This document shows, one piece after another, positions 62-37,933 of a stretch of DNA of 37,933 bases (position 1 is the stretch's first letter; each line of letters opens with the position of its first letter). Source of the stretch: a virus; the IMG/VR virus record IMGVR_UViG_3300013111_000348, positions 1 through 37,933 of that record; one strand, 5' to 3'. A program made the position numbers and the translations under genes. The notes under the pieces were generated by a model. That model was not told the origin of the DNA and did not search any database. It saw nothing but the letters and a program-made list of their open reading frames with translations.

Positions 62-265
62 CTATTCGACATTCATTTTCTCTACTGCTGGGTACTTCAA
101 CACGCTCTTTAAAGCATGAACCTTTCCTCGGTAAAACTGCGTATCTTCATACGTAGTTTTAGGGTTCTCAAGCGCCCACTGTAACTTAGTTAATTCCCTA
201 TTCACGTACGTGAACACGGCGTTCCAAGTAGGTGAGTTCTCATCTATAAATGCTCCATCGCTCAT
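62..265 (-). CDS. Small head-region protein of unknown function (67 aa)
   Basis: A 67-residue protein whose ATG overlaps the portal stop in an ATGA junction (262-265), so it is probably translationally coupled to portal. It looks helical: residues 15-55 carry ELTKLQWALE and FYRGKVHALKSVL, with no Cys and no membrane segment. The position between portal and the presumed scaffold gene suggests a small head-assembly or accessory protein. No family is recognised. Confidence 0.75.
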   Translation of the reverse strand: MSDGAFIDENSPTWNAVFTYVNRELTKLQWALENPKTTYEDTQFYRGKVHALKSVLKYPAVEKMNVE

Positions 266-2310
266 ATTCCTTTACCTTCGTTCTTTTTCGCGTAGTCTAA
301 TTCTGACATATGGATATTAGCTTTGTTATCTTCCGCTAGCTGCGCCTTCGCCATATTAGACTCGACCTGGGCCATACTTGTATCCGTCTGCGCCGCTATC
401 CTTGCCATCTCTACCTGAGCATTCATCTGCGCAATTTGTAGCTTAACCTCGATCTCTTTTTCCTTAAGTAGTAACTCTGGATCCGGTTCTTCCGCTTGCT
501 GTGCGGCCTGAGCTTCCATGGCCTTAATTTCCTCGTCGGATACGATCACGTCATTAGGCGTAATATGCTGTGCCTGAGCTACTTTCCTGAACAACTCTGC
601 TGATTTAACGAGAGGTCCAAACACAGGAGATTCTGCTAGCTGCATCATCGTTATTAAGGCTTGCGTTTGAGTTTCCTTCACCAATAAAGTTGAACTACCC
701 CGTGCATCTACCTCGAAGTCACCCTTAATGCTCTGTTTAGGGTTAAACTGCATGTTCCAGTCGTAGAACCGCGTTATCAGTGGTGCCGTTACGTCATCAT
801 CGAAACTCTTCACAACTCGTCTAAGTACGACGTTCGATGAGTTGAGTAGCATGCTCATCCCGCTGGCTGTATCAGGCGCGCCGCCCATCTCACCCTGAGC
901 TAGCATTGGAAGCGTCGTCACGTCATCCGCCATGTTCCGCGCCATATTGTATATAGCTAAGAGCTCGTCTAAATGTGAGCTCGTCTCGTGGGTATGAAAT
1001 GCGGATCTCACATCTACAGTCGGATCAGTTACGTGCCATGTCTTACGTGGACGAATAGACCAGTTACCATCATCAGGTATGAGTACTTCCCTATTCAGTA
1101 CGATCTGCCCTCCAGTCGTAAGCGCCGCGTTATCTAGCGCCATGCGCCATGCGGCGTTCGCTATACGTTGCTCATGTCTAACTAAATGCGGAATCCCGAA
1201 CCCGAATAAACTAGTATCGTCCGTCTCGTAGTTAAACACCGAATACGGCCGATCTTTCGTCTCCATTGGGTTGATATCAGCCTTGATAACGATATTATTC
1301 ACGAACGTAACGACCGCCTCATTAACCGATAGCTCGTCCTCGTCCTCGTCCTCGTCCATCTCATAGCCGCAACAAGCCAAGTCATCCTTATCTAAAGGGC
1401 CATGGTATTCCCATAGCTCGTAGCGACCTTGCGTTAAATCAGTAGCGAGCCCTGATAACTGTCTTAACCTAGATACGTGTGTGGAGCCAGAACTGTCCTC
1501 TTTCGGTGTATTTCTGATCACCAGTCTGATCTGGTCAGCTAAATACCCTGGATTACCTGCTAGTTCAATCAACTGCTTCTTAGATATATAGCGCCGCTCG
1601 AATATAAAATTAGCCTCGTCTATATGCGTAGCGGCCATATCAGGGAAGAAATCCCATACATTTATCTTTTCTACACCCGGACGAAACTCTTCGACCATTT
1701 CCATGGCCTGAACCCCTTCGCCCATGTTCTTCCAGCTTTTACGCTGTCGGGCTAGGATAATCGGGGCTTTAATGATGCCTGTACCGAATACGCACCCATC
1801 GTGTATAACGTCGCGCATTATAGAGTGATACCTAGCCTCTACGAGCTGGTCATTAATCTCTTTCTCCATGGCGCGGCTACGCTCGTTAGCGTCGTCCATC
1901 GCATCGTTAGCTAAATCCATATTACTAACAGGGTTGCCCGCGTCATCGCTAACAGGGATTCCTTGGGAGCTATGCGCCTGGCTGGGATCCTGTGCCATTT
2001 TAGCTAACTCAGGTACGGGAGTAGGTTGAATACCCCAGTTCTTATCGTCACTCGGAAAGAGCATATCCGATAGTCTCGCTTCCGCCACCGCTGTTTTCGC
2101 CCGCGTTAAGTTAACGAACGCTTTACTCCCTCCCGTGGACGATAATCTAGAAGCTGTGGCAGCGTCGTACTGGCCCATATAGCGCTCCAGATCACTGAGC
2201 CATCTGTCTTCAACTACACGGCGTACTCCAATCTGCTCTTCCGCCAGTTTAGCTAAGCTGTATCCTAAGAGCTGTATACGCTCCATATCTTGTTCTGGTT
2301 GTTCCTGCAT
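262..2310 (-). CDS. Portal (head-tail connector) protein
   Basis: A 682-aa protein immediately after TerL (TAAATG junction). By size, gene order and sequence character it is a podovirus-type portal: the dodecameric ring at the capsid vertex through which DNA is packaged and ejected. The N-terminal VEDRWLSDLERYMGQYD helix region, the central mixed alpha/beta stem/clip region and the long charged C-terminal helix (about residues 600-675, rich in Glu/Lys/Gln/Met) fit P22-like portals with a C-terminal barrel or coiled coil. A run of alternating Asp/Glu near residues 317-325 is encoded by a simple tcgtcc-type repeat at about 1335-1357 and is probably a surface loop free to vary in length. A second in-frame Met at codon 9 is an alternative start. 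The exact portal family was not tested. Confidence 0.88.
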   Translation of the reverse strand: MQEQPEQDMERIQLLGYSLAKLAEEQIGVRRVVEDRWLSDLERYMGQYDAATASRLSSTGGSKAFVNLTRAKTAVAEARLSDMLFPSDDKNWGIQPTPVPELAKMAQDPSQAHSSQGIPVSDDAGNPVSNMDLANDAMDDANERSRAMEKEINDQLVEARYHSIMRDVIHDGCVFGTGIIKAPIILARQRKSWKNMGEGVQAMEMVEEFRPGVEKINVWDFFPDMAATHIDEANFIFERRYISKKQLIELAGNPGYLADQIRLVIRNTPKEDSSGSTHVSRLRQLSGLATDLTQGRYELWEYHGPLDKDDLACCGYEMDEDEDEDELSVNEAVVTFVNNIVIKADINPMETKDRPYSVFNYETDDTSLFGFGIPHLVRHEQRIANAAWRMALDNAALTTGGQIVLNREVLIPDDGNWSIRPRKTWHVTDPTVDVRSAFHTHETSSHLDELLAIYNMARNMADDVTTLPMLAQGEMGGAPDTASGMSMLLNSSNVVLRRVVKSFDDDVTAPLITRFYDWNMQFNPKQSIKGDFEVDARGSSTLLVKETQTQALITMMQLAESPVFGPLVKSAELFRKVAQAQHITPNDVIVSDEEIKAMEAQAAQQAEEPDPELLLKEKEIEVKLQIAQMNAQVEMARIAAQTDTSMAQVESNMAKAQLAEDNKANIHMSELDYAKKNEGKGI

Positions 2311-3747
2311 TTAGTAGCCTATAGTTGTATCTGCGATAATTTTAGGTGTAACTGGGTATCTTTGTTGCGGAGGCACGATCGGTTTCGCGTATCGAAGCAT
2401 CATAATCGCGTAGCGCGTAGCCGCCATTAGGTCATCCCTTTCCTTTACCACTATCCCGTCCTTGCGATGGTAGATACGAAACTCTTCCCACCAATCCGTC
2501 AAGGTACTGGAGACCTTAAATCGCCCAGTTTGCATGCGATCCAACATATCCATTAGCCCGGCTTCTACGCCGTAACTCTTATCTTCGTTCTGTGCTCGAT
2601 CGCGTAGCATATTCAACCCGCAATCCTTGTACTGTTCCGATAACTTCTTACCGGACCCCTTGTCATGCTGTAGCCCATCATGCGGCCACGAGAACGGTAC
2701 GTCTCCCCAATTCCTCACAGCGCCAGCAAACACAATCGGCGTCGCTTCCTTAGCTCGGTGGCAAGCATGGATGTGGACTATATCCTGTTCAGGGTCATGT
2801 AATACTAATACAGCCGCTGAGGGATGTTGCCAACCGAAGTCGATCCCTGCGATCTGTTTCCACCATCCTGGCAGGTCTTTCATCTGTAGTGGATCTTCTA
2901 TAATAGAAGACTCCGTGACCGGGAATACCCGACCCGACCCCATGATTGGAATCCCTTTAGCCCTAGCCTCGCGTTCATGCTCTAAGTACGACGCTACGAT
3001 CGATTCTCGCTCTTCCTGAGTGTAATGCCCTACATCATCGATCGTCATTTTCACTACGATCTGAGCTGGAGATGGGTTTTGGAGGAATTTAGCTACTACG
3101 TTACTCATCCCAAGTAATGGAGTAAAAGTTAATATAGCTCGCTGACCTAACTGACCTCTATTAGTCCTTGTTAGCCCTTCCGCATACAACTCTTCTGGCG
3201 GCTCTTCGTCAAACCAGACCATATCAATCGTTTCGCCCTGCCATTTCTGCCTTCCTTTAGCGTAAGCTTTAAAGTAGCAGTAGCTGATGCCTCCCGACAT
3301 GTGCCTTACCTTGACGTGGTCAAATAAATTGGGGGTCCCAAGCGCTGGCTTAGGATCCCCGACGATAATCCGTTTAGGGAGGATTCCTACGTAACTATCT
3401 TCTTGCAGCTTCCCTGGTCTATCTAGTAACAGGCGTTGAGTCGTATCCCTTATCGTCTCACCGGTGTCTCCACCAACCCATATAACCGGAGCTTTTTCAA
3501 ATTTAAGCCCTCTCCACCACTTAGGGTAATTACCACTTAAGTGGAAGTAGCATTCCATAGCACCGCTATATGTTTTACCTGTCTGATTCCCTGCCATGAG
3601 GCACCTCTCAGCGTTCTCGATCCCTATACTGTGAAACTCTTCCTGCCTTGCATAGGGCTCGTACGTATTCTGAGATTCCTTTTTCCGGGCCTCTAGCTCC
3701 TTGAGGACCCGTATCCGTTCGTGTAACTGTTCCAGTGTCTCAGCCAA
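2311..3747 (-). CDS. terL: Terminase large subunit (TerL)
   Basis: A 478-aa two-domain DNA-packaging motor. The ATPase half shows a Walker A-like motif MAGNQTGKT at residues 51-59, Walker B MVWFDEE ending at D180/E181, and a coupling-type segment LTFTPL at 206-211. The nuclease half starts with the RNase H-like strand AGIDFGW (D303), has a WPHDG segment further on, and ends with an acidic ERDDLMAATRYA helix carrying the last metal ligand. The start overlaps the end of the putative TerS gene by 8 bases, and portal follows at once. The protein would cut concatemeric DNA and pump it into proheads. The ATPase/nuclease motif set leaves little doubt about function. The packaging type (cos, pac or direct terminal repeats) cannot be told from this window. 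Confidence 0.95.
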   Translation of the reverse strand: MAETLEQLHERIRVLKELEARKKESQNTYEPYARQEEFHSIGIENAERCLMAGNQTGKTYSGAMECYFHLSGNYPKWWRGLKFEKAPVIWVGGDTGETIRDTTQRLLLDRPGKLQEDSYVGILPKRIIVGDPKPALGTPNLFDHVKVRHMSGGISYCYFKAYAKGRQKWQGETIDMVWFDEEPPEELYAEGLTRTNRGQLGQRAILTFTPLLGMSNVVAKFLQNPSPAQIVVKMTIDDVGHYTQEERESIVASYLEHEREARAKGIPIMGSGRVFPVTESSIIEDPLQMKDLPGWWKQIAGIDFGWQHPSAAVLVLHDPEQDIVHIHACHRAKEATPIVFAGAVRNWGDVPFSWPHDGLQHDKGSGKKLSEQYKDCGLNMLRDRAQNEDKSYGVEAGLMDMLDRMQTGRFKVSSTLTDWWEEFRIYHRKDGIVVKERDDLMAATRYAIMMLRYAKPIVPPQQRYPVTPKIIADTTIGY

Positions 3748-14941: not shown

Positions 14942-14998
14942 TAGGGAGCAACAAGTCCTTGCCCGACACTAAATAAACCGGCACCCACTAACACCTGG

Positions 14999-15022
14999 CT
15001 AAGGACCTGAGTACGTCCTTAG
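14999..15022 (+). promoter_or_regulatory. 8-bp hairpin between moxR and VWA genes
   Basis: CTAAGGAC (14999-15006) and GTCCTTAG (15015-15022) form a perfect stem with an 8-base loop in the 127-bp gap between the two partner genes. No T-run follows, so it is probably a processing or attenuation hairpin that sets the ratio of the two proteins. Confidence 0.5.
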
Positions 15023-15068
15023 TCTACCCCCATCGAGGTTTAAACTGCTCACCCAACAAGGAAAAACT

Positions 15069-16190
15069 ATGAACTTACTACCTCACGAACAAATAATCAA
15101 AGCACGCACAACATTACTGAGGAAATCCCCTTTCTTCGGCATTCTTACCCTCAAACTAATGGTCATGGAAGAGAGTCAAATAACTGACACCATGGCGACC
15201 GACGGATCCACGCTTTTTTATAATAAAGAATGGGTTAAAACCTTATCCCCACCCGAGACATTAGGCGTAGTATGCCACGAGATTCTACATTGCGCCCTAC
15301 TCCACCCTTACAGACGTGGCAAGAGAGATAAAGACAAATGGAACGCGGCTTGCGACTTCGCTATTAACTGGCCTTTAGTAAATGACTTCGGTTACACCTT
15401 ACCCGAAGGAGGGTTAATAGATTCCGATTACGCAAACATGCCTGCAGAACAAATATACAGACTCCTACCAGATTCATACAAATATAAAGGTACAAAACCT
15501 TGGGGAGAAGTGTTTGACGCTGTAGAGGTTAACACCGCCGGTAAAACCACAGCAGACCAAGAAAAAAGCTGGGAAGTTTTAACTGAAGAAGCTAAAGAAA
15601 GCGCCAGATCACGAGGGTTCAAAGGGGGCGGAACCTTAACTAGAATTGGACTAGGAAAACCACGCATAGATTGGAAAACCCAAACTGCAAATATCATTGG
15701 CAACATAACTAAAACTGATTATGCATGGATTCCTCCCGATCTAATTTACTTAACCAGAAATATCCACGTACCTACACTCCACGAACCTAATGTAGGACAT
15801 ATCGTATTCGCTGTAGATACTAGCGCTTCCGTACGAATGAAAGAGTTACAGCAATTCTGGGCTGAACTACGCCACTTATTATCTACCGTCAACTTGACCA
15901 AGGTCACAGTCATACAATGCGACACAAAAATACGAAGAGTCGATGAATACGAAACCAATGACTTACCTAAGTTAGAAGTAGTAGGCAGAGGCGGAACAGC
16001 ATTCATGCCTATATTCGAACGACTCGATGACCCTGAAGAGACTATAAACGCACTCATATACTTCACTGACATGGGTAGTTGGGATTTCCCAGAGCAAGAA
16101 CCTGAATACCCTGTGTTCTGGGCTAGAACAGAAAACTTAGATGCCCCATTCGGTCAACACATAGATTTATACCAAAATGAGGAGGATTGA
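15069..16190 (+). CDS. VWA-like metallopeptidase-fold partner of MoxR (DUF2201-type)
   Basis: A 373-aa protein with the layout of the DUF2201 family. The N-terminal putative metallopeptidase domain has VVCHEILHCALLH (HExxH, H70-E71-H74) and a WNAACDFAIN segment (D96) that would complete the zinc site. The C-terminal von Willebrand A-like domain has a MIDAS: DTSAS (D250, S252, S254), GRGGTAF (T310) and YFTDMG (D334). Together with the upstream AAA+ ATPase it forms the classical MoxR-VWA module. It would bind a client through the metal-dependent VWA site. Whether the zincin domain is proteolytic in phages is not established. Confidence 0.9.
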   Translation: MNLLPHEQIIKARTTLLRKSPFFGILTLKLMVMEESQITDTMATDGSTLFYNKEWVKTLSPPETLGVVCHEILHCALLHPYRRGKRDKDKWNAACDFAINWPLVNDFGYTLPEGGLIDSDYANMPAEQIYRLLPDSYKYKGTKPWGEVFDAVEVNTAGKTTADQEKSWEVLTEEAKESARSRGFKGGGTLTRIGLGKPRIDWKTQTANIIGNITKTDYAWIPPDLIYLTRNIHVPTLHEPNVGHIVFAVDTSASVRMKELQQFWAELRHLLSTVNLTKVTVIQCDTKIRRVDEYETNDLPKLEVVGRGGTAFMPIFERLDDPEETINALIYFTDMGSWDFPEQEPEYPVFWARTENLDAPFGQHIDLYQNEED

Positions 16191-17098: not shown

Positions 17099-17284
17099 AT
17101 GAGTGACACGTACCTAATCCAATTAACTAAAGTTTTAACTGATCTACAGGACCGCTATGCCAAAGAATCCGAAGCCAGAGCAACCGAAAGGAATGAAATT
17201 CGACGAATCCAAACCGGATTGGAGTCTACTCCCGATGAAAGGTTTCGAACCCGTAGTGCGAGTCCTAACCTACGGCGCAACTAA
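17099..17284 (+). CDS. Doubtful overlapping small ORF (61 aa)
   Basis: The ATG follows the previous stop directly (TAAATG) and the first 20 residues (MSDTYLIQLTKVLTDLQDRY) look like a genuine helix. However, two thirds of the frame overlaps the well-supported DUF5664 gene and there reads as an Arg/Ser-rich string. It may be a short coupled gene with overlapping end, or a leader that carries ribosomes to the next start. Confidence 0.3.
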   Translation: MSDTYLIQLTKVLTDLQDRYAKESEARATERNEIRRIQTGLESTPDERFRTRSASPNLRRN

Positions 17285-17456
17285 ATACGAACGCGACAAC
17301 TGGAAATATGTACAGAATGGAGAGCATAGGTATCTGGCCGCCGCACTACGCCACCTAGCCGCCTACCAAAGTGGCGAACGCACAGACCAAGAAACTGGGG
17401 AGAGCCACCTTGCTCACGCAATATGCTGCCTCATATTCCTGCTAATACTCGATTAA
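17157..17456 (+). CDS. DUF5664 family protein (dATP/dGTP diphosphohydrolase N-terminal domain-like)
   Basis: A 99-aa protein with the family pattern in full: GMKFDESKPDWSLLP, then VVRVLTYGATKYERDNWKYV, RYLAAALRHLAAYQSGE and TGESHLAHAICCLIFLL. This all-alpha domain is related to MazG-type nucleotide pyrophosphohydrolases. Members annotated as dATP/dGTP diphosphohydrolases (MazZ-like) occur in phages that make unusual purine nucleotides, but this copy has only the single domain and no PurZ is seen in the window. The conserved HL-x2-A-x-C pattern carries the helix-end acids and histidines likely to bind metal or nucleotide. The start at 17157 has an AGGA site and family agreement. It probably trims the dNTP pool, with ThyX nearby. 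Confidence 0.85.
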   Translation: MPKNPKPEQPKGMKFDESKPDWSLLPMKGFEPVVRVLTYGATKYERDNWKYVQNGEHRYLAAALRHLAAYQSGERTDQETGESHLAHAICCLIFLLILD

Positions 17457-25830: not shown

Positions 25831-26035
25831 ACCTGGCATCTGGTACGAAGAAGCTAGAAAAAGATATCGCGTAAGACTATATAAGGGTAAAAAGGTATTC
25901 CACCTAAGTTACCACGCTGATTACGACAAAGCCTTATCTACATATAACAAAGTTAAAACTCTACCAGATAAAGCTGGCACCCTAGATACCCTATGCCAAC
26001 AACTAGATATACACTTTAACAAGAGGACAAAATGA
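25817..26035 (+). CDS. AP2/integrase-arm-like small DNA-binding protein (72 aa)
   Basis: Residues 7-47 (GIWYEEARKRYRVRLYKGKK, VFHLSYHADYDKALSTYNKV) form the three-strand plus helix pattern of AP2/ERF-like or lambda-integrase-arm (MrpA-like) DNA-binding domains common in phages. There is no catalytic domain. It overlaps the GST-like gene and thyX on each side (14 and 4 bases). Probably a small DNA-binding regulator or the DNA-reading part of a lost nuclease. Confidence 0.6.
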   Translation: MQKTKPGIWYEEARKRYRVRLYKGKKVFHLSYHADYDKALSTYNKVKTLPDKAGTLDTLCQQLDIHFNKRTK

Positions 26036-26652
26036 CCGCCAAGTTAATATCCATAACACCTAACGCCGAACAAATAATAGCCTACTGCGCTCGCGTATCA
26101 TCAGATAACCAAAACAACCCCGACACCGCCAAACTATTAAGCTACTGCCTTAAGCACAAGCACTGGAGCCCATTCGAACACGCGTCAATGACTATACAAA
26201 TAGATACAAGCAGAGCTATAGCCCGCCAAATTCTACGGCACAGATCATTCTGCTTCCAAGAATTTAGCCAACGATATAACTCAAGGCTCGCATTCGAGTC
26301 TATAAACCCACGAAAACAAGCCGAAAAGAATAGGCAAAGTTCCACAGGTAACTGCGATACCGCAACACAATCCTACTTTAACGAAGCTGCTAAGGACATA
26401 GAGGAACTAGCAACCAAGCACTACCAAGAATGTATAAACATGGGTATAGCCCGAGAATCTGCCAGATTCCTACTCCCCGAATCCACCCTATCTAAGTTAT
26501 ACATGACGGGAAACATACGATCTTGGATACACTACATTAATTTACGTACAGAACCTGAAACTCAGCTTGAGCATAGAGTAATAGCAGACGAAATAAAATC
26601 AATACTAAAAGAACAACTACCCGTACTAGAGGAAATATTATGGCAGCAATAA
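26032..26652 (+). CDS. thyX: Flavin-dependent thymidylate synthase
   Basis: A 206-aa ThyX. The signature RHR-x7-S-x-R is present: RHRSFCFQEFSQRY at 69-82, with R69/H70/R71, S79, R81. Other family features: HWSPFEHASMTIQI (44-57), ARESARFLLPEST and RSWIHYINLRTEPETQLEHR (the substrate arginine and FAD/dUMP contacts). It methylates dUMP to dTMP using methylene-tetrahydrofolate, FAD and NADPH. It supplies dTTP for replication and belongs with the DUF5664 protein to nucleotide metabolism. The start overlaps the previous stop as ATGA. Confidence 0.95.
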   Translation: MTAKLISITPNAEQIIAYCARVSSDNQNNPDTAKLLSYCLKHKHWSPFEHASMTIQIDTSRAIARQILRHRSFCFQEFSQRYNSRLAFESINPRKQAEKNRQSSTGNCDTATQSYFNEAAKDIEELATKHYQECINMGIARESARFLLPESTLSKLYMTGNIRSWIHYINLRTEPETQLEHRVIADEIKSILKEQLPVLEEILWQQ

Positions 26653-28074: not shown

Positions 28075-31000
28075 TTAACTACCTATAGCAGCTTTTAATG
28101 TAGAACTTTGATTTAAAACTGGCGTAAATTTCCATACATCTTCTGGCCTATCTAACATCTTAACCAACACACCAAACGGTACACCCATAAAATTAGCTAA
28201 AGCCCTGTTACCACGTTCCATATCCGTATTAGCATCATCTATGAGTTGCAATGGTCCATACAATCCAGCTCTCCGAGCCACTTCACTCAAGTAATCTAAC
28301 CCGTGATAATCCCTCGTAGTATCCTTCAAGTCCAATGCTTCCGCAGGCAGCTTACCAAATAATAGCTTACGTAACTCATACCCAACAGCAGCTAACGGCA
28401 TGACCGTCGCCCCAAGGACTATAAGCGGTAATACCTTAGCCGCCCCTTTAGCATCTCCCATATTCACCATCGTCTGATGCCAGATAGTCTCATAAAACGA
28501 CCACATGAACCCCCGTAAATAGAAAAACATAGCCATTCTATGATCCGACCCATAATAAGGACGTGTCTGCGCGTCAGGCCGCATTATCGCCTCATCCACC
28601 CATCGATTAATCGCAGTACGGATTTCTATCGATATATCCCCTACTCGAGAAGAATCTATAGTATTCTGATCTAACCCTGCATCAACCCAATCCTGTACCA
28701 GCTTCTTCGTTAACCCCAATCGCGCTAACTTCTCAGCTGACTTCGCATCATTCTGCTTAGCCAAGTACCGGATATCATCCTTAGCCACTTGCACCGCAGC
28801 AATCCTCGTAAAATCCGTCCACCTCTTCAACCCGATCGCCCTAAAGAACTTATCATTTATACGTTTAAAAGCAGTTGGCATATAGCCTATTTCCATCGAC
28901 GATGCCAACGTATGATCTACCATCCCATCATAAATGGTCAATAACATACTAGCGTATGACTTAGCTTCTTCCGCATATTTCGGATCCTTCAGATACCGCA
29001 TAGTATCCTGCAATCCCTTCCAACTACGTTTAAACCCGTCTGTCTCCCCTAGCCTAATATAAATACCAGCCAAATCAGGTAATGACGTTAACGACGCCCC
29101 ACTCAACAAGCTAGTATTAAGACCCGTTAAAACCCCCGCCTGAGCCTTCCGCACAGTCGGATTCATATCCGCCCCGAGTGACCCTTTGTAAGCCTCCAAC
29201 GCTTTGAACCTTATCCAATTAGCCTGCTTAGCCGTTAAAGGATCGTTTACCGATCGCACAGCATAATTTAGCTGAAATTCTAACTTAGCTGTAGGATGCC
29301 ATCTATGCCTTAACTCTCCACCTACACCTAATTCCATGATAGGTCTACCATAGGCATCAAATGCGTACCCGCCATACTGCCTTTGCCAAGCCAACCTTTT
29401 AGCCAACGCATCGGTATAACCTATTACTAGAGTATTGATGTCATCTACATAATATCCAGCTAAAGCCTTACTTAATTCAGGGGTAAATACACGTCGATAC
29501 TTAGCTCTAAAAGAGGACGTAACGAACGCATCCACGTCAACCCCCGGATCAACTTGCCCATCGTGGCTAGCAATCTCCTGCCACAACTGCTCAGCCTCAA
29601 CCTCGGTCATAGTAGGCTTACTATTAACCCTTCTATCCTCCGCTAGAAAGATCTCGATGATCTTCTCCTTCGCTCCCTCAGCTATCCACTTACCCTGAGT
29701 ATCTAAGACCAATGGAAAGTAATTTTTAGTCCCTTCCATACGTAAATCCTGCCCATACCTCCCATATACAGCTTTGAAATACGTTCTAACGGCTGTAACT
29801 TCTTCTCGTATATTACGCGGTACACTTGAAATTGGGGTGTGCCTAACCAAGTGCAGTGATATAGATTTAAGTTTAGACTCAGTCCTACGGGCCTTATCGG
29901 GGTCCCGCTTCTTGTCGAACCATGTAGGCATGTCAGGAATCTTTTTCAATGTCTCGATCATCCCAACCTTAGTGGTCCCATTAGAGCCGTGAACCCGCAT
30001 ATCCAGGTAAAGCCGTTGCTGATACCCTTTAATTATCTCAGGAATGGTAGGGACGCCAGTTTCATGCCCTTGTACACGGAAGTTCTTAGCTATAGCTGTT
30101 GCGGTGGGCGACCCCATCGCTCTAAGAACCCTGTCCACCGACTTATACAATGGGTCAAACATACTCAACTTATCTACCAATTTCTCAGTATGCTCCAGTG
30201 TAGCTTTACCTACCCTAGAGTCTCGGGCACTAGAAACAACGCGTTCACCTATAAAGAAGTCCTGCGGCGCTGACTTGACTCCCGAAACGTCCCCTCTACG
30301 GTGCATTGTAGTAGAAACGCTAAGACTCCTAGCAGCCTCCACGTATTTATCTGGATGCCCCACTATATGCCTGTTAACCATAGCGTCTAAAAAGGCGTTG
30401 AAGCTAATTTGAGGGTCCATAGATTTAGGCTTAACCTTGAGCTGAGCCCTCAAATCGCTAATACGCTCCCTAATACCCTTAAGCTCACTCTCGAGCATTG
30501 CCTCTTCATGGTTAAGTAGGCTTAATCTACCTTTATACCTATCTCGCGCATCTATCTCCGCCGCCATTCTCTCCGCTACCGCGCCTAACGAGTAACCTTG
30601 TACGAAGCGGGAGTCCCCCTTCGAGACTTTAGTACTACCCTCCATAGGTTTACCGGCTTCTAACCATTCGTAAACGCTTTGTGCGGGGTACTTTCCTTTA
30701 ACGCCTACATCTTTAGGCGCTTCCTCCCACCACCTAGAGTCTAATACTACCTTCTTACCTTTTCCTTCGGCTTCCGCCACAGGCGTATAGTTAGGGGTCA
30801 ACTTATTAAACGTCTTACTCAACTTAGGGTTACCTATACCGATCTCGGTATCTGCATTAACCCCAGCTATTTTCCATATATGGCTTAGTATCCCTTGCAG
30901 TACGTTTATATCCTCGTCATGATTCTTAATAAGGCGGGCTAATTTATCCCGTTCTTCAGCCCTTTTATCCTTAGCAGCGCGTAAGTTCCCCTTTTCAAAG

Positions 31001-34000
31001 TGTTCTTTTACTATCTCATCTCGACGCTTCTCTAGCTCCTTTAGTTCTACCTTCCGTTCCTGGTTACCACGCTCTCCGACCTTAATGATAACCGACTTAA
31101 GCGACTGAACTAACCTCTTGAGTTTTTCTAGTATACCTTTAAAGAATGTATTAACTGCGTCACTAGCCTCTGGACGCCCGTCCACCCAGTGAATAAACAT
31201 GTCTGCGAAGCGCTCTCTAGCAGCGGTGGCTTCTTTATCGTCCGCCCAGTTCACCTCACCGAATATCTCCCGAAGTATAACCTGCGAATCTTTATCCGTC
31301 CGCCCTAAAAGCTGATCCAACGAAACGCGTTGTACTAAGTGGCCGAATTCATGAGCCAATGCTTTCACTATATCGACGTCGATCTGCGCTGACTTAATCC
31401 CCGCTAACTGAGCTTCCAGATTCTGCAAGTCCTTACGGGCTTTAATCTTATCCCCTGGTTTTAATTTACCCCGTTGACCGGCTATACGCTCGATTTGAGC
31501 TTTCAGCTCCTTTATTTTAGCTTTATTATTGGCTTTAAGCTGCTTAGCCGAGGGGACGTAAATTACGGGTACTCGCAACTTTGAATACTTGTATTTATCC
31601 ATATACACGACGCGAGAGGAGAGGATACCTTTATCCTCCGCTCCGTCGACGACTATACTATTAAGCATTTTAATAGCGTCATCAAACTCAGCTAAATTAC
31701 CCTCCGTTACCAGTTTCTGGTTTAACCCTCGCAACTCTTCGTGTTCTTCATCCGTTCGCTTCTTCTTTTCTAACGTCTCCTTCCGCGCGTCCCTCTTCTT
31801 CTGGGCTTTGATGAGTCTAGCTTTCTCAGCTTTTAACTCATCTATGTACTTCAGTATACCCTCCATATCGGCCATCACTACTTGCGTATCGATACCTAGT
31901 AGTTTCTTCCAAGAGTCTACGAGCTTAACTGCCCGTTTATCGCTAGTATAATCATGCGTTTTCTTTAGTTTGTTAAGGTCTCTCTTACCTATTTTAGCGG
32001 GGTCGGCGTCCGCTCCAAACTTAACAGTCCGCTGTATAGTACCATCCCGATCAGGGTGCTTAAGAGGCGGATTAGCTGAGGTCAAGCGTGAACCTGAATC
32101 TAGAGCGCTGGCTGGATCGTTAGTACCGCCCTCTAACCTAGTTTCATAGTCTGCGTTCTCCCTATGCATTTTAAGTAATCCTAACTTACTCATAATATCA
32201 TGGGTGTCCCCTCCATTCTCCAACTCCTCTTCTAGTATCTCTATAGCCCTCTCTTCCACCTCGCCATATGGCCCGTCTATATCAATACCTGCTAAATACC
32301 GCTTACCTATAGCTCGGCTCTTAGACGCCTCCTTATTTATTAAACGAGGTAACCAATAAGGTATATCGACTCCCTTAATGGCTTTATCTGATACCTCCTC
32401 ATTTAGCGCCGTAGTAAACAGATCAGCAGCCGTATCAACGTAATACATCTCAAGTCCATCTAGGTAAAGATAATCATCGACACCAAGGTATTCTTGCACG
32501 CCCTTCTCTACACCGTGTTTTTCTACACTCTTCAGTAACTGCTTCCTAGCTTTTACAGCATCCTTGTTCTTAAATGACTTATTAACTAAAAGTTTTATGT
32601 TCTTATATGCGCTCGAGAGCCGCTCCGCCTCTAGTAAATACCTTTTAGCCACAACCTCGTCGGTAGCCCGTTCACTACGTATTCCCATGTAACCACTTTC
32701 GAACATAGGCTCCTTCGAACTAGCGACAAACAGGTCCGTAAGTATCGTCGCTTCCTCCTCAACGGTCAAAGGCGAGAATGGGCGCGAGCTGCCACCCAAT
32801 GAAGCTAAGGGGATATCGTTTACTTTAACCCACTGATCAATGAACGAAACCCTCTGCGACCGAAGTTTACTTGGATCAGGCGCGTTATCTCTATAGTCGA
32901 TTGATATATCGTACGTAACCGTCTCATTCCGCCCTCCTACATCCGTAGAACTTAATACTGTAAGTCCTGTTAGTAGAGCTTCCTTCTTATCTGAAACAGA
33001 CGCTACCCCCATTACACCGTTTAAATCCAGCCCTAGCCGCATAATCTTGTACCCATCAAACGCTACTTTGGCCCCGCGTTCTCCGTTTACTATCTTATCG
33101 AGCATGATTTTATTTTTCCGATAACTTCGACCTGCCTCTTTCATGAGCTCAAACCGCTTCAGTAGCTTAGAGGCGTTGATCTCCGCATCCCTGGTATCGT
33201 TACGATGCGCTACAACCCACGAAGATCCGGTTTTTGAGTCCGCTGCTTTTTCTATAGTAACTTGCTGCGATAACTCCATGAACTGGTCGTATCGCATACT
33301 GGCAAACATGTTGGACAATGTTTTAGCGTTCCCTACACCCTTATACTTGTATCTAACAGTATCTGATAAACTGGTATTCGGGACTATCATAATCGTCCTA
33401 GGATCGTCTGCAAAGGCAGGCTTGGCCTTATTAGCCTCATCCGTAACGTCTATATATTCACCTATAGCACCCTTCGCACGTCTGATAAATAATAAGTCAT
33501 CCGTCCCATAAGCTACTTTAGCGATGGTGATTGCCCGGTCTAGCAAGGTTTTGGTCCCCTTAACTGACTTAAACCCAGCAGTTTTCAGCATAATAGGCTC
33601 GCCTTCCCTGAACTGCTCCCAGTTAGTTTCCGGCCCTTCGCCGTTAACTCGGAAATTAACTAAACGAGGGTCAACTTGCTGACTATCCGTATCACCAGAA
33701 ACTACCTCTCCGTCCTCGTCGTACCCCGCATTCTGATGCGCCTGTCCCTGCGTCGCATTAAGGATATCCGCTTCAACGGATCCTTCGGTCACATCGGCCC
33801 TATCAGGCATAAACCTATTGTAATCCCAGATATCTTTGAGCCGCCCGAACGCTAGTTTAGCTTCGAACCCTCTCCCGAAGTGTGATAATTTCACGTTCTC
33901 CACTTTGCCTTCGTCGGTATTAAACGCGAAATCTATAGATCTAGGGTTACGTATATCATGGAAAAAATCAACGAACACGGCTTCAACGCCTGTCTTCGTT

Positions 34001-37000
34001 TCGGTATAGTCCTCAGGGTTGACGTCATAGGTGCCTACTACTTTATCGCCTTTCATGACTTCGAAACTCATAACCTTAGTCATGGTATCAGGTGTTTCTT
34101 TACCTGTAGTGACCTGATTAAGTACTTTATCCCAATCTAAAGTCTTACTATACTCGTTCAATACCTCCTTGATATAATCGCCGTGACACGCCTTAGGTGA
34201 ACAGAAGCATCCTAAAATTAGTTCATCTTTAGACTTGGCTACATTATATAGTCGTTCTAACTCCGTTATAACCGGAGGGTATTGCTTGGCAATTTTGTCA
34301 TTCAACCAACCACGAAACTTGGCAATGACCTCCTCACGTTGACTTTCCCCCTTCATTGGGAAGGGGTTACCTAGTGGTGATCCGCGCCCAATGTACTGGG
34401 CTTTAGGGTCGCCTTTTCTACCCACTTTTATGGGTAGGGTGGGCTCCACCCTACGCTTGATCTCCGTTATAGTGTGCCCTTTCGGGGGGACTATATACGT
34501 CATAGTATTCTTACCGCCTTCAGTAAAGTCATAAGCAAGCTCAGATGACTCGAACTGACCCTTTATCAGCGATTCGGATTCGGCTCTAGTACCGTCGAAT
34601 ATAAAGTCGAGATCATGCACCTCCGATCCTTGCGGACGGTACATAGGACCCTGCGGTGCGTAAGCTATACTACCAGTAAGTACGGCCCTAGGATCGGTAC
34701 CTATACTAGACATAATACTATGCGCTAACTTATTTCCGTTAAACGATTCCTGCAAATCTACTAAAGCATATCCTTCTTTTTCCGTCGCGCGGATGAAGTT
34801 AACATCGTCCCCTTCAAACGTATTATCTACGATATTCTTTATTTGAGCTTTTACTTCCGGCCACTCTGGACTCCCTGTAAACTCTTCGAGCAACGCTTTT
34901 ACATCAGCTATGAATTTAAGTATCTTGGCTTTTAACGTCGCGGTAATGTTGTAGTCTTTAGATAGCTTATCGCTAATGCCGTCTTCCAGTAAACGCTGGA
35001 AAACCTCCTTAGTAACCGTGCGCTGTGCTTTATCTTCCGCCCTCTTTGCATTAGAATCAGTATTGGATTCTAACAATGCGGCCACCTCTTTCTTGAACTG
35101 CTCGGTTTCAGTTATAGCACGGCGAACCGCAGTAAATTCATGCGACCTACTCATCATGGTGGCTAGTGGTTCAGCTAGAGCCTTCGCTAGTTGAACCGGG
35201 TCTCTAAGGTCAGCCTCTATCTCCTTGTGAGCCATATTTACAAGTAACCGCTCCGCATAGCTAACCTCAAACCCGTAGTGGTTTAAAAACTTCACAGTAC
35301 GGTCAACCGCATCACCATAACTTCGCGACTTACCTGTAGTAGCCTCCACTTCCCTTTTCGGTTTAGTCTTACTAGGCGTCTTTTCCCCTTTCTTAAGCCC
35401 TTCGACGAGGAACTCTTGTATGATCTTTTCCAGCTCGGCTTGACTATCCGCGCCCACTTTCCCGAAGTCGCGTCCTCTAATACCAGCGATATTAAGTGAA
35501 TGAACGTTCTCGTTAGTCGCTAAAAATTCGGCAAACCCTGCGACATACTCTTCCCATTCCTTCCCTTTCTCTTTATAAGCAGGTACTAAGCCCTCTAACA
35601 TGATAACGTGGTGTGGCATCCCGTGCCGTTTCGCTATATCAATAGTAGAGATCGTACCAATCGACTCTACGCGATTAAAAGCGATAGTCGCGCCCGCTTT
35701 CAGCACGTTTCTCTTAGTTCTAGGAGGGTACTTATCAGATTCATCCTCGGTAAATATGTGTTGGTCCACTTTAGCTACAGATCCATCCTCGGTTCTATAC
35801 CCCTTCGGCACTACTCCGCCTAGTTCTATGTCCCATCCCTCGCGCTTAAGCTGCTGACCCGCCCTTATACCTGCAATATCACCACCGGTCTGCCCACCAG
35901 ATATAATAGTAGTAACACTATTATGACCTGTAGTGACTGGAGGATACTCAGGCTTAGCTTTAGCTTCTGCGAACTGTCTTTCTATTAAGGCCGCAACCGA
36001 TGGGGCGACTTCTTTATCCGCTACCCCTAGCTCCCTCATAAGATTATTATAGAACTCTATTATGGAGTCCGCGATACGCTCTATGACCCCTTTAGATTCA
36101 GCGCTAAGGTCTAGTCCATGCTTGCCAGTTAGCAAATAATGGCCTACTTGATCAGCGAACCATTCATCCATCTTAGTTTTACTCGGGTCCTCCGCTAAGG
36201 AAGCATCCGCTCTAGTCTGACCTATAGGGCTACGTCGATTATCGTAAGCTTGCGCCGCATCAGCTGAATCTTGCGCCGCATCAGCTGAATCTTGCGCCGC
36301 ATCAGCTGAATCTTGCGCCGCATCAGCTGAATCTTTCCACTTTTTAAAGTCCTGTTTTAAGTTCTTAAGTTCTTCGCTAGTATAACCCGCGTTCTTAGGT
36401 AACTGCTTCCATTTGCCTTCATCAACGAGGGTATGCTCTGAATCTAACCTCAGCGCATGGGACAAGGCGTGCCCTACTTCGTGTGCAAACACGTCCATGG
36501 CTTGAGCGCGTTCTAAAGGCGTACTATCCGTACTTTGTATTTTACGAAGCTCCGAATCCGAGAGCTTTATTTGCCTCCGTCCTGGGTTAAACTCACCCTG
36601 ATTGTTTAGGTTAGGATCGCTCACTATAGTAGGAGCGTCCTTCTCCCTCCCTATGCTACTGAACCACTTAGTAGTTACCTCTTGTAGTTTCTTTACGGTT
36701 TCACTGTAGTCACCAGTGTCTTTAGCCCTGGACTTATCCTGCGGTATACCCCCATACTCAGATCTTATTTCAGTTAATATCGCAGGGAATTCATTAGTCC
36801 AATAATCTGCCTTGCCACCTGTATGAGTTAGTTTAGACTTACCTGTAGCTAGTAAGGCTGCTTTGGCTTCAGGGTTAGCCTCGAATGACGCCTTCATTAA
36901 GGTCTTCATCAGATCCCTATTAGTGGCTTGGTTCGCCTTTTTACGGCCCCTAACCTTATCCTTCTCTTCCCACTCTTTGTCTTTAAATGTGGCCTCGTCA

Positions 37001-37933
37001 AACTTACCGCTCTTTAACGTCTGGTAAGCGTGCTCCACAGACTTGTATTCACGCCCTTCATACGTAAAAGCTCTGGGTGCCAAATTACTGAGGATAGCGT
37101 TTTCGCCACTGCCGTGCCGTACGTTTACGGGGGTATCGTCCTCTTCCTCTGTATCCCGCCCTTGCTCCTTCTCGAACGCCTCTTTAGCCTCGTGCACAAG
37201 CTGATCGTCGCCACCATCTGGCACCCCACTGAAATCAATAGGCCCACTCATGGTGTTGAAGGGGATCCCATCACCGTCAGATGCGCCGTCTTCGTTAGCT
37301 ATAATTTCGTTATCAACTGTTTCAGTTGGGGTGTGGGTTTCGTTCGGCACCCCATCATCGCTATTAAAATTGAAATTACCTACTGAACCTTGACCTGTAG
37401 TACTCTGTCCTTGATCTGCACCGTCTACTGAACCTTGACCTGTAGTACTCTGTCCTTGATAAGCCTCGTAAGACTCTTTTCCTCCGGGTTTCCACTTAAT
37501 ATCAGCTCCACTGACGTCAAACCATTGATCTAAGTCCGCGTGTATACTAGGGTCGACTGAACGTAACGTGTCGTACGCCTCTCTAGCAGCCGCTGAGTTA
37601 TTCGATCGGATGTTATCAGCTATGCTACTGAGCATATTGTCACGGAAATCTATATCTGGATTACCTCCGTCACTCGGAGGTGCCGGAGCGGGCGGCTCCT
37701 CACCTGGTCTCGGTGGCGCCGTCCCTGGGCCGGGCTCTCCGCCTAACGAACCCACGCCGCCGCTAATGGCACCAAGGGATCCTCCGGTTACCCCTCCGGC
37801 AACTGCCGCCTCTTTAAATTCTTGAATCGCTTCAGGCCCAAGGGGGTCGAAACTCGGATCCTGTATACCTCGTAATACAATATCGACAGCGGTTTGCATA
37901 GTCTCAGTCACTGACTCAGTTGCTCCCGATACC
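28075..37933 (-). CDS. Giant polyvalent virion protein, N-terminus outside the window
   Basis: The frame is open to the right edge; I number residues from the first usable codon (GTG at 37911), giving 3,278 aa, but the true start is probably upstream. Domains: Gly/Pro-rich region (about 35-85); NADAR (about 262-392: SNLAPRAFTYEGREYKSVEH); zincin 1 (HEVGH 477-481 with EWFAD 583-587); putative molybdenum-carrier/SLOG domain (666-835: IISGGQTGGD, INxAG-type end); nucleotidyltransferase-like (GSIAYAP 1080-1086, HDLDFIF with D1100/D1102); DUF4326 (1160-1255: YIGRGSPLGNPF, CFCSPKACHGDY); zincin 2 (HEFGH 2187-2191, ERFAD 2233-2237); long helical Lys/Glu segments; and an about 700-aa C-terminal region (2560-3278) of the large-polyvalent-protein type with a hydrophobic stretch at 3161-3178. 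Such proteins are thought to be packaged and injected to protect phage DNA. Confidence 0.85.
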   Translation of the reverse strand, partial: VSGATESVTETMQTAVDIVLRGIQDPSFDPLGPEAIQEFKEAAVAGGVTGGSLGAISGGVGSLGGEPGPGTAPPRPGEEPPAPAPPSDGGNPDIDFRDNMLSSIADNIRSNNSAAAREAYDTLRSVDPSIHADLDQWFDVSGADIKWKPGGKESYEAYQGQSTTGQGSVDGADQGQSTTGQGSVGNFNFNSDDGVPNETHTPTETVDNEIIANEDGASDGDGIPFNTMSGPIDFSGVPDGGDDQLVHEAKEAFEKEQGRDTEEEDDTPVNVRHGSGENAILSNLAPRAFTYEGREYKSVEHAYQTLKSGKFDEATFKDKEWEEKDKVRGRKKANQATNRDLMKTLMKASFEANPEAKAALLATGKSKLTHTGGKADYWTNEFPAILTEIRSEYGGIPQDKSRAKDTGDYSETVKKLQEVTTKWFSSIGREKDAPTIVSDPNLNNQGEFNPGRRQIKLSDSELRKIQSTDSTPLERAQAMDVFAHEVGHALSHALRLDSEHTLVDEGKWKQLPKNAGYTSEELKNLKQDFKKWKDSADAAQDSADAAQDSADAAQDSADAAQAYDNRRSPIGQTRADASLAEDPSKTKMDEWFADQVGHYLLTGKHGLDLSAESKGVIERIADSIIEFYNNLMRELGVADKEVAPSVAALIERQFAEAKAKPEYPPVTTGHNSVTTIISGGQTGGDIAGIRAGQQLKREGWDIELGGVVPKGYRTEDGSVAKVDQHIFTEDESDKYPPRTKRNVLKAGATIAFNRVESIGTISTIDIAKRHGMPHHVIMLEGLVPAYKEKGKEWEEYVAGFAEFLATNENVHSLNIAGIRGRDFGKVGADSQAELEKIIQEFLVEGLKKGEKTPSKTKPKREVEATTGKSRSYGDAVDRTVKFLNHYGFEVSYAERLLVNMAHKEIEADLRDPVQLAKALAEPLATMMSRSHEFTAVRRAITETEQFKKEVAALLESNTDSNAKRAEDKAQRTVTKEVFQRLLEDGISDKLSKDYNITATLKAKILKFIADVKALLEEFTGSPEWPEVKAQIKNIVDNTFEGDDVNFIRATEKEGYALVDLQESFNGNKLAHSIMSSIGTDPRAVLTGSIAYAPQGPMYRPQGSEVHDLDFIFDGTRAESESLIKGQFESSELAYDFTEGGKNTMTYIVPPKGHTITEIKRRVEPTLPIKVGRKGDPKAQYIGRGSPLGNPFPMKGESQREEVIAKFRGWLNDKIAKQYPPVITELERLYNVAKSKDELILGCFCSPKACHGDYIKEVLNEYSKTLDWDKVLNQVTTGKETPDTMTKVMSFEVMKGDKVVGTYDVNPEDYTETKTGVEAVFVDFFHDIRNPRSIDFAFNTDEGKVENVKLSHFGRGFEAKLAFGRLKDIWDYNRFMPDRADVTEGSVEADILNATQGQAHQNAGYDEDGEVVSGDTDSQQVDPRLVNFRVNGEGPETNWEQFREGEPIMLKTAGFKSVKGTKTLLDRAITIAKVAYGTDDLLFIRRAKGAIGEYIDVTDEANKAKPAFADDPRTIMIVPNTSLSDTVRYKYKGVGNAKTLSNMFASMRYDQFMELSQQVTIEKAADSKTGSSWVVAHRNDTRDAEINASKLLKRFELMKEAGRSYRKNKIMLDKIVNGERGAKVAFDGYKIMRLGLDLNGVMGVASVSDKKEALLTGLTVLSSTDVGGRNETVTYDISIDYRDNAPDPSKLRSQRVSFIDQWVKVNDIPLASLGGSSRPFSPLTVEEEATILTDLFVASSKEPMFESGYMGIRSERATDEVVAKRYLLEAERLSSAYKNIKLLVNKSFKNKDAVKARKQLLKSVEKHGVEKGVQEYLGVDDYLYLDGLEMYYVDTAADLFTTALNEEVSDKAIKGVDIPYWLPRLINKEASKSRAIGKRYLAGIDIDGPYGEVEERAIEILEEELENGGDTHDIMSKLGLLKMHRENADYETRLEGGTNDPASALDSGSRLTSANPPLKHPDRDGTIQRTVKFGADADPAKIGKRDLNKLKKTHDYTSDKRAVKLVDSWKKLLGIDTQVVMADMEGILKYIDELKAEKARLIKAQKKRDARKETLEKKKRTDEEHEELRGLNQKLVTEGNLAEFDDAIKMLNSIVVDGAEDKGILSSRVVYMDKYKYSKLRVPVIYVPSAKQLKANNKAKIKELKAQIERIAGQRGKLKPGDKIKARKDLQNLEAQLAGIKSAQIDVDIVKALAHEFGHLVQRVSLDQLLGRTDKDSQVILREIFGEVNWADDKEATAARERFADMFIHWVDGRPEASDAVNTFFKGILEKLKRLVQSLKSVIIKVGERGNQERKVELKELEKRRDEIVKEHFEKGNLRAAKDKRAEERDKLARLIKNHDEDINVLQGILSHIWKIAGVNADTEIGIGNPKLSKTFNKLTPNYTPVAEAEGKGKKVVLDSRWWEEAPKDVGVKGKYPAQSVYEWLEAGKPMEGSTKVSKGDSRFVQGYSLGAVAERMAAEIDARDRYKGRLSLLNHEEAMLESELKGIRERISDLRAQLKVKPKSMDPQISFNAFLDAMVNRHIVGHPDKYVEAARSLSVSTTMHRRGDVSGVKSAPQDFFIGERVVSSARDSRVGKATLEHTEKLVDKLSMFDPLYKSVDRVLRAMGSPTATAIAKNFRVQGHETGVPTIPEIIKGYQQRLYLDMRVHGSNGTTKVGMIETLKKIPDMPTWFDKKRDPDKARRTESKLKSISLHLVRHTPISSVPRNIREEVTAVRTYFKAVYGRYGQDLRMEGTKNYFPLVLDTQGKWIAEGAKEKIIEIFLAEDRRVNSKPTMTEVEAEQLWQEIASHDGQVDPGVDVDAFVTSSFRAKYRRVFTPELSKALAGYYVDDINTLVIGYTDALAKRLAWQRQYGGYAFDAYGRPIMELGVGGELRHRWHPTAKLEFQLNYAVRSVNDPLTAKQANWIRFKALEAYKGSLGADMNPTVRKAQAGVLTGLNTSLLSGASLTSLPDLAGIYIRLGETDGFKRSWKGLQDTMRYLKDPKYAEEAKSYASMLLTIYDGMVDHTLASSMEIGYMPTAFKRINDKFFRAIGLKRWTDFTRIAAVQVAKDDIRYLAKQNDAKSAEKLARLGLTKKLVQDWVDAGLDQNTIDSSRVGDISIEIRTAINRWVDEAIMRPDAQTRPYYGSDHRMAMFFYLRGFMWSFYETIWHQTMVNMGDAKGAAKVLPLIVLGATVMPLAAVGYELRKLLFGKLPAEALDLKDTTRDYHGLDYLSEVARRAGLYGPLQLIDDANTDMERGNRALANFMGVPFGVLVKMLDRPEDVWKFTPVLNQSSTLKAAIGS
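36250..36333 (-). repeat. Four perfect 21-bp tandem repeats inside the giant gene
   Basis: Four identical units at 36250-36270, 36271-36291, 36292-36312 and 36313-36333 encode (DSADAAQ)x4 at residues 527-554, between the HEVGH and EWFAD halves of zincin 1. Base-identical copies indicate recent expansion. The heptad should form a helical spacer of variable length. Confidence 0.95.
37380..37460 (-). repeat. Two 36-bp direct repeats (45-bp period) in the giant gene
   Basis: 37380-37415 and 37425-37460 are identical and in frame, encoding QGQSTTGQGSV twice in a Gly/Ser/Thr/Gln-rich linker (residues about 151-178). They lie between the N-terminal region and NADAR. A flexible linker that has grown by duplication. 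Confidence 0.92.

What the first reader, a model, noticed from the sequence alone, without database searches (positions are those of the whole stretch)
28075..37933. Giant injected protein carrying several possible anti-defence modules
One leftward gene of more than 9.8 kb encodes, in order, NADAR, zincin 1, a SLOG/YpsA-like putative molybdenum-carrier domain, a nucleotidyltransferase-like core, DUF4326, zincin 2 and a large C-terminal region. NADAR enzymes are known to remove ADP-ribose from guanine in DNA. SLOG-type domains sense or process nucleotide ligands. Such polyvalent proteins are proposed to enter the cell with the DNA. The set looks aimed at NAD/ADP-ribose-based host defence (DarT-type toxins, NAD-linked signalling). 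Domain identities are from visible motifs; the defence role is inference.
Basis: partly seen in the sequence, partly recalled or inferred. Interest (0 to 1): 0.88.

Follow-up and report, generated by a model that had tools for sequence, protein, structure and literature searches.

The report
Giant phage protein with ADP-ribose enzymes
An uncultured bacterial virus carries one huge protein, probably packed in the virus particle and injected with its DNA, that strings together several enzymes thought to disarm bacterial alarm signals and toxins made from NAD; the enzyme set is known, but this arrangement on an injected giant protein is an unusual variant.

Summary
One minus-strand ORF (28075-37932) runs off the window's right end, giving at least 3,285 aa; homology suggests roughly 230-370 aa are missing from its N-terminus. 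It carries a NADAR domain, a zincin, a cpYpsA-type SLOG domain, a probable nucleotidyltransferase (NTase), DUF4326, a second zincin and a long C-terminal region. DUF4326 appears to be inserted inside the NTase domain: a related viral protein has both NTase halves without it. The C-terminus is homologous to proteins annotated as virion structural proteins (KPP25 ORF088; PHROG 30152). The late-gene order also matches KPP25, so this is a polyvalent ejection-type protein by homology; no virion proteomics exists. The NADAR has all three catalytic residues, but the third is His (phage gp30.3 class). T4 phage NADAR, of that class, removes ADP-ribose from guanosine in vitro yet does not rescue cells from DarT1, so the DarT reading is only partly supported; soluble ADP-ribose signals or other guanine-ADP-ribosylation are at least as likely. 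The prediction that NADAR, SLOG and DUF4326 fusions counter NAD/ADPr defences is already published. New here: the trio with an NTase on a virion-type scaffold, and a NADAR clade largely lodged in giant phage ORFs. New variant of a known kind.

The parts
28075..37932 (-). Giant ORF, at least 3,285 aa, 5'-truncated by the window end
   Evidence: no stop upstream; residues 9-59 align to internal residues 368-418 of phiA008 (E=1e-5), with weaker matches to L009 332-378 and L006 229-269
37756..37908 (-). Residues 9-59: Gly-rich hydrophobic segment shared with the N-terminal third of related phage giants
36757..37125 (-). NADAR domain, residues 270-392; catalytic-type E300, K307, H370 (phage gp30.3 class)
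36013..36570 (-). Zincin 1, residues 455-640 (HEVGH 484-488, E590)
   Evidence: motif plus weak similarity to the phiA008 zincin (hhalign probability 44%, E=2e-4)
36249..36335 (-). Perfect 21-base tandem repeat, 4.1 copies (QDSADAA repeats), between the two zinc-ligand motifs of zincin 1
35353..35919 (-). cpYpsA-type SLOG domain, residues 672-860 (GGQTGGD 679-685, RT..N 738-742)
34441..34890 (-). Probable NTase domain, first half, residues 1015-1164 (LTGSIAYA 1085-, YR 1098-, HDLDF 1106-1110)
34141..34440 (-). DUF4326, residues 1165-1264 (YIGRG, CFC 1242-1244, CHG 1249-1251), inserted in the NTase domain
33763..34065 (-). Probable NTase domain, second half, residues 1290-1390 (candidate third acidic residue in VFVDFF, about 1322)
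31513..33762 (-). Unassigned region, residues 1391-2140; no Pfam or phage tblastn match
31153..31380 (-). Zincin 2, residues 2185-2260 (HEFGH 2194-2198, E2240)
   Evidence: motif only
28213..30135 (-). Conserved mostly helical C-terminal scaffold, about residues 2600-3240, homologous to phage virion proteins
2311..3747 (-). Large terminase (context: start of the late operon)
262..2310 (-). Portal protein (context)

Best explanation
This is the 5'-truncated gene of a polyvalent virion (ejection) protein. The conserved C-terminal scaffold and N-terminal segment place it in the particle, and it enters the cell with the DNA. Its zincin domains cut the chain into pieces, or act on host proteins. 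The cargo then acts before any phage gene is expressed: NADAR hydrolyses N-glycosidic ADP-ribose links (on guanine in DNA or RNA, or in soluble ADPr derivatives), SLOG binds or cleaves a related NAD-derived nucleotide, DUF4326 probably processes the phosphates, and the NTase modifies a nucleotide or a protein. Together these pre-empt NAD/ADP-ribose-based host defence. Shown here: domain identities, catalytic residues of NADAR, homology of the scaffold to annotated virion proteins, operon position, and recurrent association of these domains. Inferred: packaging and injection of this protein, proteolytic processing, substrates, and the anti-defence role.
For: C-terminus: PHROG 30152 'virion structural protein' E=3e-19; KPP25/R18/CRPAP1904 'structural protein' and Aeromonas phage phiA008. 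Gene order terminase-portal-...-giant matches KPP25. Homologues sharing the C-terminus carry curated polyvalent domains: LPD1, ddrB-ParB, ART-PolyVal; one has SNase, and 9 of 10 giants compared, window included, carry an HExxH motif. Domain matches. Catalytic residues E300/K307/H370. The same modules recur fused in other phages: NADAR+DUF4326 in UCB24 and L115, DUF4326+DprA/SLOG-like in Ebordelon, NADAR+SLOG in 12 ORFs of one scan, NADAR+DUF4326 in a 2,281-aa protein on an unrelated scaffold. At one position in otherwise 65-88% identical giants, NADAR (L156), nothing (L157) or DUF7831 (L158, L159) is found, as expected of exchangeable cargo. Published predictions: PMC9503650, PMC7824862, PMC5512222.
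Against: No virion proteomics and no biochemistry for this protein. The 5' end and all genes between portal and giant are missing from the window. The zincins rest on motifs. NTase support is weak and there was no fold match. The C-terminal structure model is unusable (mean pLDDT 39). About 750 residues have no assignment. NADAR and SLOG families also include members with other roles (riboflavin-intermediate N-glycosidase; ligand sensors).
Confidence: 0.6

Rival explanations
1. The NADAR module specifically reverses DarT1-type guanine ADP-ribosylation of the incoming phage DNA; the other modules serve other targets.
For: All NADARs tested in PMC11125620, phage-encoded included, hydrolyse guanosine-ADPr DNA; E300 and K307 are conserved. 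DarTG is a phage defence (PMC9250638, cited within PMC11833690).
Against: His370 is the phage gp30.3-class residue, not the Asp of DarT1-linked NADARs (PMC11543638). Phage NADAR did not rescue DarT1 toxicity (PMC11125620) and T4 NADAR was weaker than the C7 enzyme on RNA (PMC11833690).
Confidence: 0.2
2. The enzyme modules deal with NAD-derived nucleotides or damaged nucleic acids in general (RNA or DNA repair, nucleotide salvage) rather than with a defence system.
For: NADARs act on riboflavin intermediates and were linked to RNA repair (PMC9503650). Other giants carry AlkB-like 2OG-Fe(II) oxygenase domains next to NADAR. PMC7824862 links DUF4326 to replication and restriction-modification components.
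Against: The modules lie in a late-operon protein with a virion-type scaffold rather than in the repair/replication block at 5.9-26.7 kb; swap-in/swap-out of modules between close relatives looks more like conflict than housekeeping.
Confidence: 0.2
3. The protein is mainly a structural/ejection component and the N-terminal domains are degenerate passengers.
For: The NADAR scores below Pfam's cut-off; DUF4326 in relative L163 has lost its CxC/CHG cysteines (sequence); a large unassigned region.
Against: In the window E/K/H of NADAR, GGQTGGD and RTxxN of SLOG, and all invariant residues of DUF4326 (G,R,N,R,CxC,P,CH) are kept; both zincins keep HExxH and Glu.
Confidence: 0.1

Closest known systems
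Phage-type polyvalent proteins (Iyer et al. 2017, PMC5512222)
   Same: Very large, many disparate enzyme domains, interspersed zincin MPTases, late-gene position, homologous C-termini with proteins bearing LPD1, ddrB-ParB and ART-PolyVal
KPP25/R18 (Kochitakasuvirus) giant virion structural protein; Aeromonas phage phiA008 UIS74281
   Same: C-terminal scaffold, upstream zincin motif, end-of-late-operon position (KPP25)
   Different: 22-26% identity in the C-terminus; no NADAR, cpYpsA or DUF4326 motif; phiA008 has an SNase domain instead
Viral NADAR/SLOG/Macro/DUF4326 network (PMC9503650, PMC7824862)
   Same: Same domain set, fused in pairs, predicted to act on NAD-derived signals
   Different: Described as typically stand-alone proteins; here three together on a virion-type giant with an NTase interrupted by DUF4326
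T4/KVP40 gp30.3 (phage NADAR)
   Same: His-type active site; E and K conserved; tblastn match to KVP40 30.3
   Different: gp30.3 is a stand-alone protein of about 150 aa (0 of 80 loci in ORFs of 1,000 aa or more)
crAss-like phage giants cr126_1 (2,402 aa, next to an RNAP subunit) and cr130_1 (5,801 aa)
   Same: Same His-type NADAR embedded in a giant gene
   Different: Different scaffold; no cpYpsA or DUF4326 motif found

Membership tests
Phage polyvalent protein | Several disparate enzymatic domains in one polypeptide | tested here: met
Phage polyvalent protein | Zincin-like MPTase (HEXXH plus Glu in a later helix) | tested here: met
   two HExGH motifs with EWFAD/ERFAD downstream; motif level, fold not confirmed
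Phage polyvalent protein | Shared architecture with curated polyvalent domains (LPD, ddrB-ParB, ART-PolyVal) | tested here: met
   homologues by C-terminus carry them; the window protein itself has no LPD hit
Phage polyvalent protein | Encoded among late/virion genes | tested here: met
   same strand as terminase and portal; order as in KPP25; direct neighbours lie outside the window
Phage polyvalent protein | Present in the particle and injected | not testable with these tools
   only homology to annotated structural proteins
NADAR, phage gp30.3 class | Conserved Glu and Lys seven residues apart, third catalytic residue His | tested here: met
   E300, K307, H370
NADAR, DarT1-linked (BC4488) class | Third catalytic residue Asp; linked DarT1 | tested here: not met
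   His370; domain lies in a giant protein with no ART domain hit
cpYpsA SLOG | Pfam PF12694 above cut-off with GGQTG motif | tested here: met
   69 bits against cut-off 26.2
DUF4326 | Pfam PF14216 above cut-off; invariant G,R,N,R,CxC,P,CH | tested here: met
   61 bits against 25
Pol-beta-type nucleotidyltransferase | GS motif, DxD, third acidic residue, NTase fold | tested here: inconclusive
   GS and DxD conserved with L162; NTP_transf_5 E=0.009 in L162, below cut-off; no fold match

The most novel reading that the evidence does not exclude
Giant virion proteins are exchangeable cargo platforms that pre-deliver a matched set of NAD/ADP-ribose-processing enzymes. A distinct clade of His-type NADARs is specialised for this virion-borne use, and in the window's protein NADAR, SLOG, DUF4326 and an NTase act in sequence on one NAD-derived defence signal.
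Probability: 0.3. Interest if true: 0.82.

Novelty: new variant of a known kind. Interest (0 to 1): 0.6.

Why it matters
Most known phage counter-measures to NAD-based defence are made after infection starts; a virion-delivered set would act first. The recurrence of the same NADAR type inside giant ORFs, and its replacement by another domain or by nothing at the same position in close relatives, gives a concrete, testable rule for finding injected anti-defence cargo. It also supplies isolated modules (NADAR, SLOG, DUF4326) whose substrates are open questions.

Tried and rejected
Near relatives of the whole protein in IMG/VR: none found. Terminase neighbours at 82-90% identity exist, but all are fragments; the larger ones searched lack the giant gene. 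Prophage homologues of the C-terminus in bacterial genomes: none by this pattern search. Structure of the C-terminus: confidence too low, not searched. Structure of the NTase half plus DUF4326: DUF4326 well modelled, no PDB match; the slice later proved to cut the NTase in two. The reading that LPD38 is the C-terminal domain was considered from memory; no Pfam hit, so not claimed. SLOG-like and macro-like segments in L163 are by eye only; a PDB search of the SLOG-like one was empty. The 62-of-80 figure for NADAR in ORFs of 1,000 aa or more comes from seeds that were all giants; a control scan with three other phage NADARs (two stand-alone, one from the small UCB24 NADAR-DUF4326 fusion) gave 0 of 80. 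The two numbers describe two sub-clades, not the whole superfamily. A paper on KPP25 virion proteins was not in the library.

Full report
WHAT IS THERE. The ORF at 28075-37932 on the minus strand has no stop up to the window end. The window is a linear IMG/VR record of 37,933 bases, so the gene is cut at its 5' end. The first residues of the readable part (9-59) align to residues 368-418 of Aeromonas phage phiA008's giant protein (E=1e-5) and more weakly to internal stretches of L009 and L006. Roughly 230-370 residues are therefore probably missing, and the GTG at 37911 is probably not the start. Terminase and portal lie on the same strand at the other end of the window. In KPP25 the order is terminase, portal, capsid and tail genes, then the giant gene, all in one direction. 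The window fits that order with the middle of the late operon missing.

DOMAINS. Pfam gives cpYpsA (676-837, E=5e-19), DUF4326 (1173-1256, 2e-16) and NADAR (277-379, 1.4e-5, below cut-off). A small NADAR profile matches the YbiA and NADAR structures at 5e-23 and 2e-17. SLOG matches 3imk. Two zincin motifs are present with the downstream Glu that PMC5512222 describes. The first lies near the NADAR, and its EWFAD motif resembles that of phiA008. The NTase core is not seen by Pfam in the window. However, locus L162 encodes NADAR followed by a region matching window residues 1015-1154 (LTGSVAYADQVPVYRKKDAPLHDIDLL against LTGSIAYAPQGPMYRPQGSEVHDLDFI, E=6e-11) and then window residues 1297-1384 (E=4e-8), with only about 40 residues between them. 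In the window about 140 residues containing DUF4326 lie there instead. DUF4326 is thus most simply read as an insertion in an NTase domain, although loss in L162 is not excluded. L162's region matches NTP_transf_5 at E=0.009, below the curated cut-off, so the NTase is probable, not proven.

SCAFFOLD. The C-terminal region (about 2600-3240) matches PHROG 30152 and 6958, both 'virion structural protein', and KPP25-type and phiA008 proteins. Eight IMG/VR loci share it. Their N-terminal parts differ, and Pfam finds LPD1, ddrB-ParB, ART-PolyVal or (phiA008) SNase. Nine of the ten giants compared, window included, carry an HExxH motif. This is the phage polyvalent-protein architecture of PMC5512222, established by homology; packaging and injection are inferred.

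WHICH NADAR. PMC11543638 defines three catalytic positions: Glu, Lys seven residues later, and a third residue that is Glu in YbiA, Asp in DarT1-linked NADARs and His in phage gp30.3 proteins. The window has E300, K307 and H370. In a scan seeded with the window, cr126_1 and L156 NADARs, 62 of 80 loci have the domain inside an ORF of at least 1,000 aa, and 56 of 57 of these unique NADARs (window included) have His. The seeds were giants, so this fraction is biased. A control scan with KVP40 30.3, Lu11 and UCB24 gave 0 of 80 in such ORFs, with His in 74 of 74 unique sequences. So His marks the gp30.3 class as a whole, and one sub-clade of it sits largely in giant ORFs, many of them like the crAss-like phage genes cr126_1 and cr130_1. 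T4 NADAR, of this class, hydrolyses guanosine-ADPr in DNA and RNA in vitro, but phage NADAR does not rescue DarT1 toxicity (PMC11125620, PMC11833690).

ASSOCIATIONS. NADAR is fused to DUF4326 in Erwinia phage UCB24 and L115, DUF4326 to a DprA/SLOG-like domain in Pseudomonas phage Ebordelon, NADAR and SLOG share an ORF in 12 loci, and L163, a 2,281-aa protein without the window's C-terminus, has NADAR plus a degenerate DUF4326, with a SLOG-like segment seen by eye. cpYpsA is found in other giants of 3,000-4,500 aa. In four of these, otherwise 65-88% identical, the same position holds NADAR (L156), nothing (L157) or DUF7831 (L158, L159). This is what exchangeable cargo would look like. PMC9503650 and PMC7824862 already predicted that NADAR, SLOG and DUF4326 jointly process NAD-derived signals.

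MECHANISM. Most likely the protein is packaged, ejected with the genome and perhaps cut by its zincins, after which the modules remove or alter ADP-ribose-containing signals or modifications before phage genes are expressed. Steps shown: sequence identities, intact catalytic residues, scaffold homology, gene order, recurrent fusions. Steps inferred: packaging, injection, cleavage, substrates, defence role.

VERDICT. Observation confirmed; interpretation partly supported. It is a new variant of a known kind: a polyvalent virion-type protein carrying NADAR, cpYpsA, DUF4326 and an NTase, with DUF4326 apparently nested in the NTase.

Noticed in passing
L156-L159 (L156:1470-14714 and relatives): Giant phage ORFs of 4,200-4,500 aa, 65-88% identical, differ at one position: NADAR, nothing, or DUF7831. 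They also carry cpYpsA and (L156) an AlkB-like 2OG-Fe(II) oxygenase.
   Followed up: partly
L110:6778-24183 and L106:5509-12717: crAss-like phages cr130_1 and cr126_1 carry a His-type NADAR in giant genes of 5,801 and 2,402 aa; the second lies next to a putative RNA polymerase subunit.
   Followed up: partly
window 36249-36335: Perfect 21-base repeat (4.1 copies, QDSADAA) inside zincin 1, between HEVGH and EWFAD; likely length-variable linker.
   Followed up: no
window 13937-16190: AAA ATPase gene followed by a DUF2201 metallopeptidase-like/VWA gene, a MoxR-VWA-like pair in a phage.
   Followed up: no
window 17157-17456 and 26032-26652: A dATP/dGTP diphosphohydrolase N-terminal domain protein and a Thy1 thymidylate synthase; nucleotide-pool genes, no PurZ recognised among the proteins scanned.
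   Followed up: no
L163:4813-11655: 2,281-aa protein with NADAR, degenerate DUF4326, an HExxH motif and, by eye, SLOG-like and macro-like segments, on a scaffold unrelated to the window's.
   Followed up: partly
L111, L112, L113: Stand-alone DUF4326 proteins 60-61% identical to the window's DUF4326, closer than N4 gp12, suggesting recent exchange.
   Followed up: no
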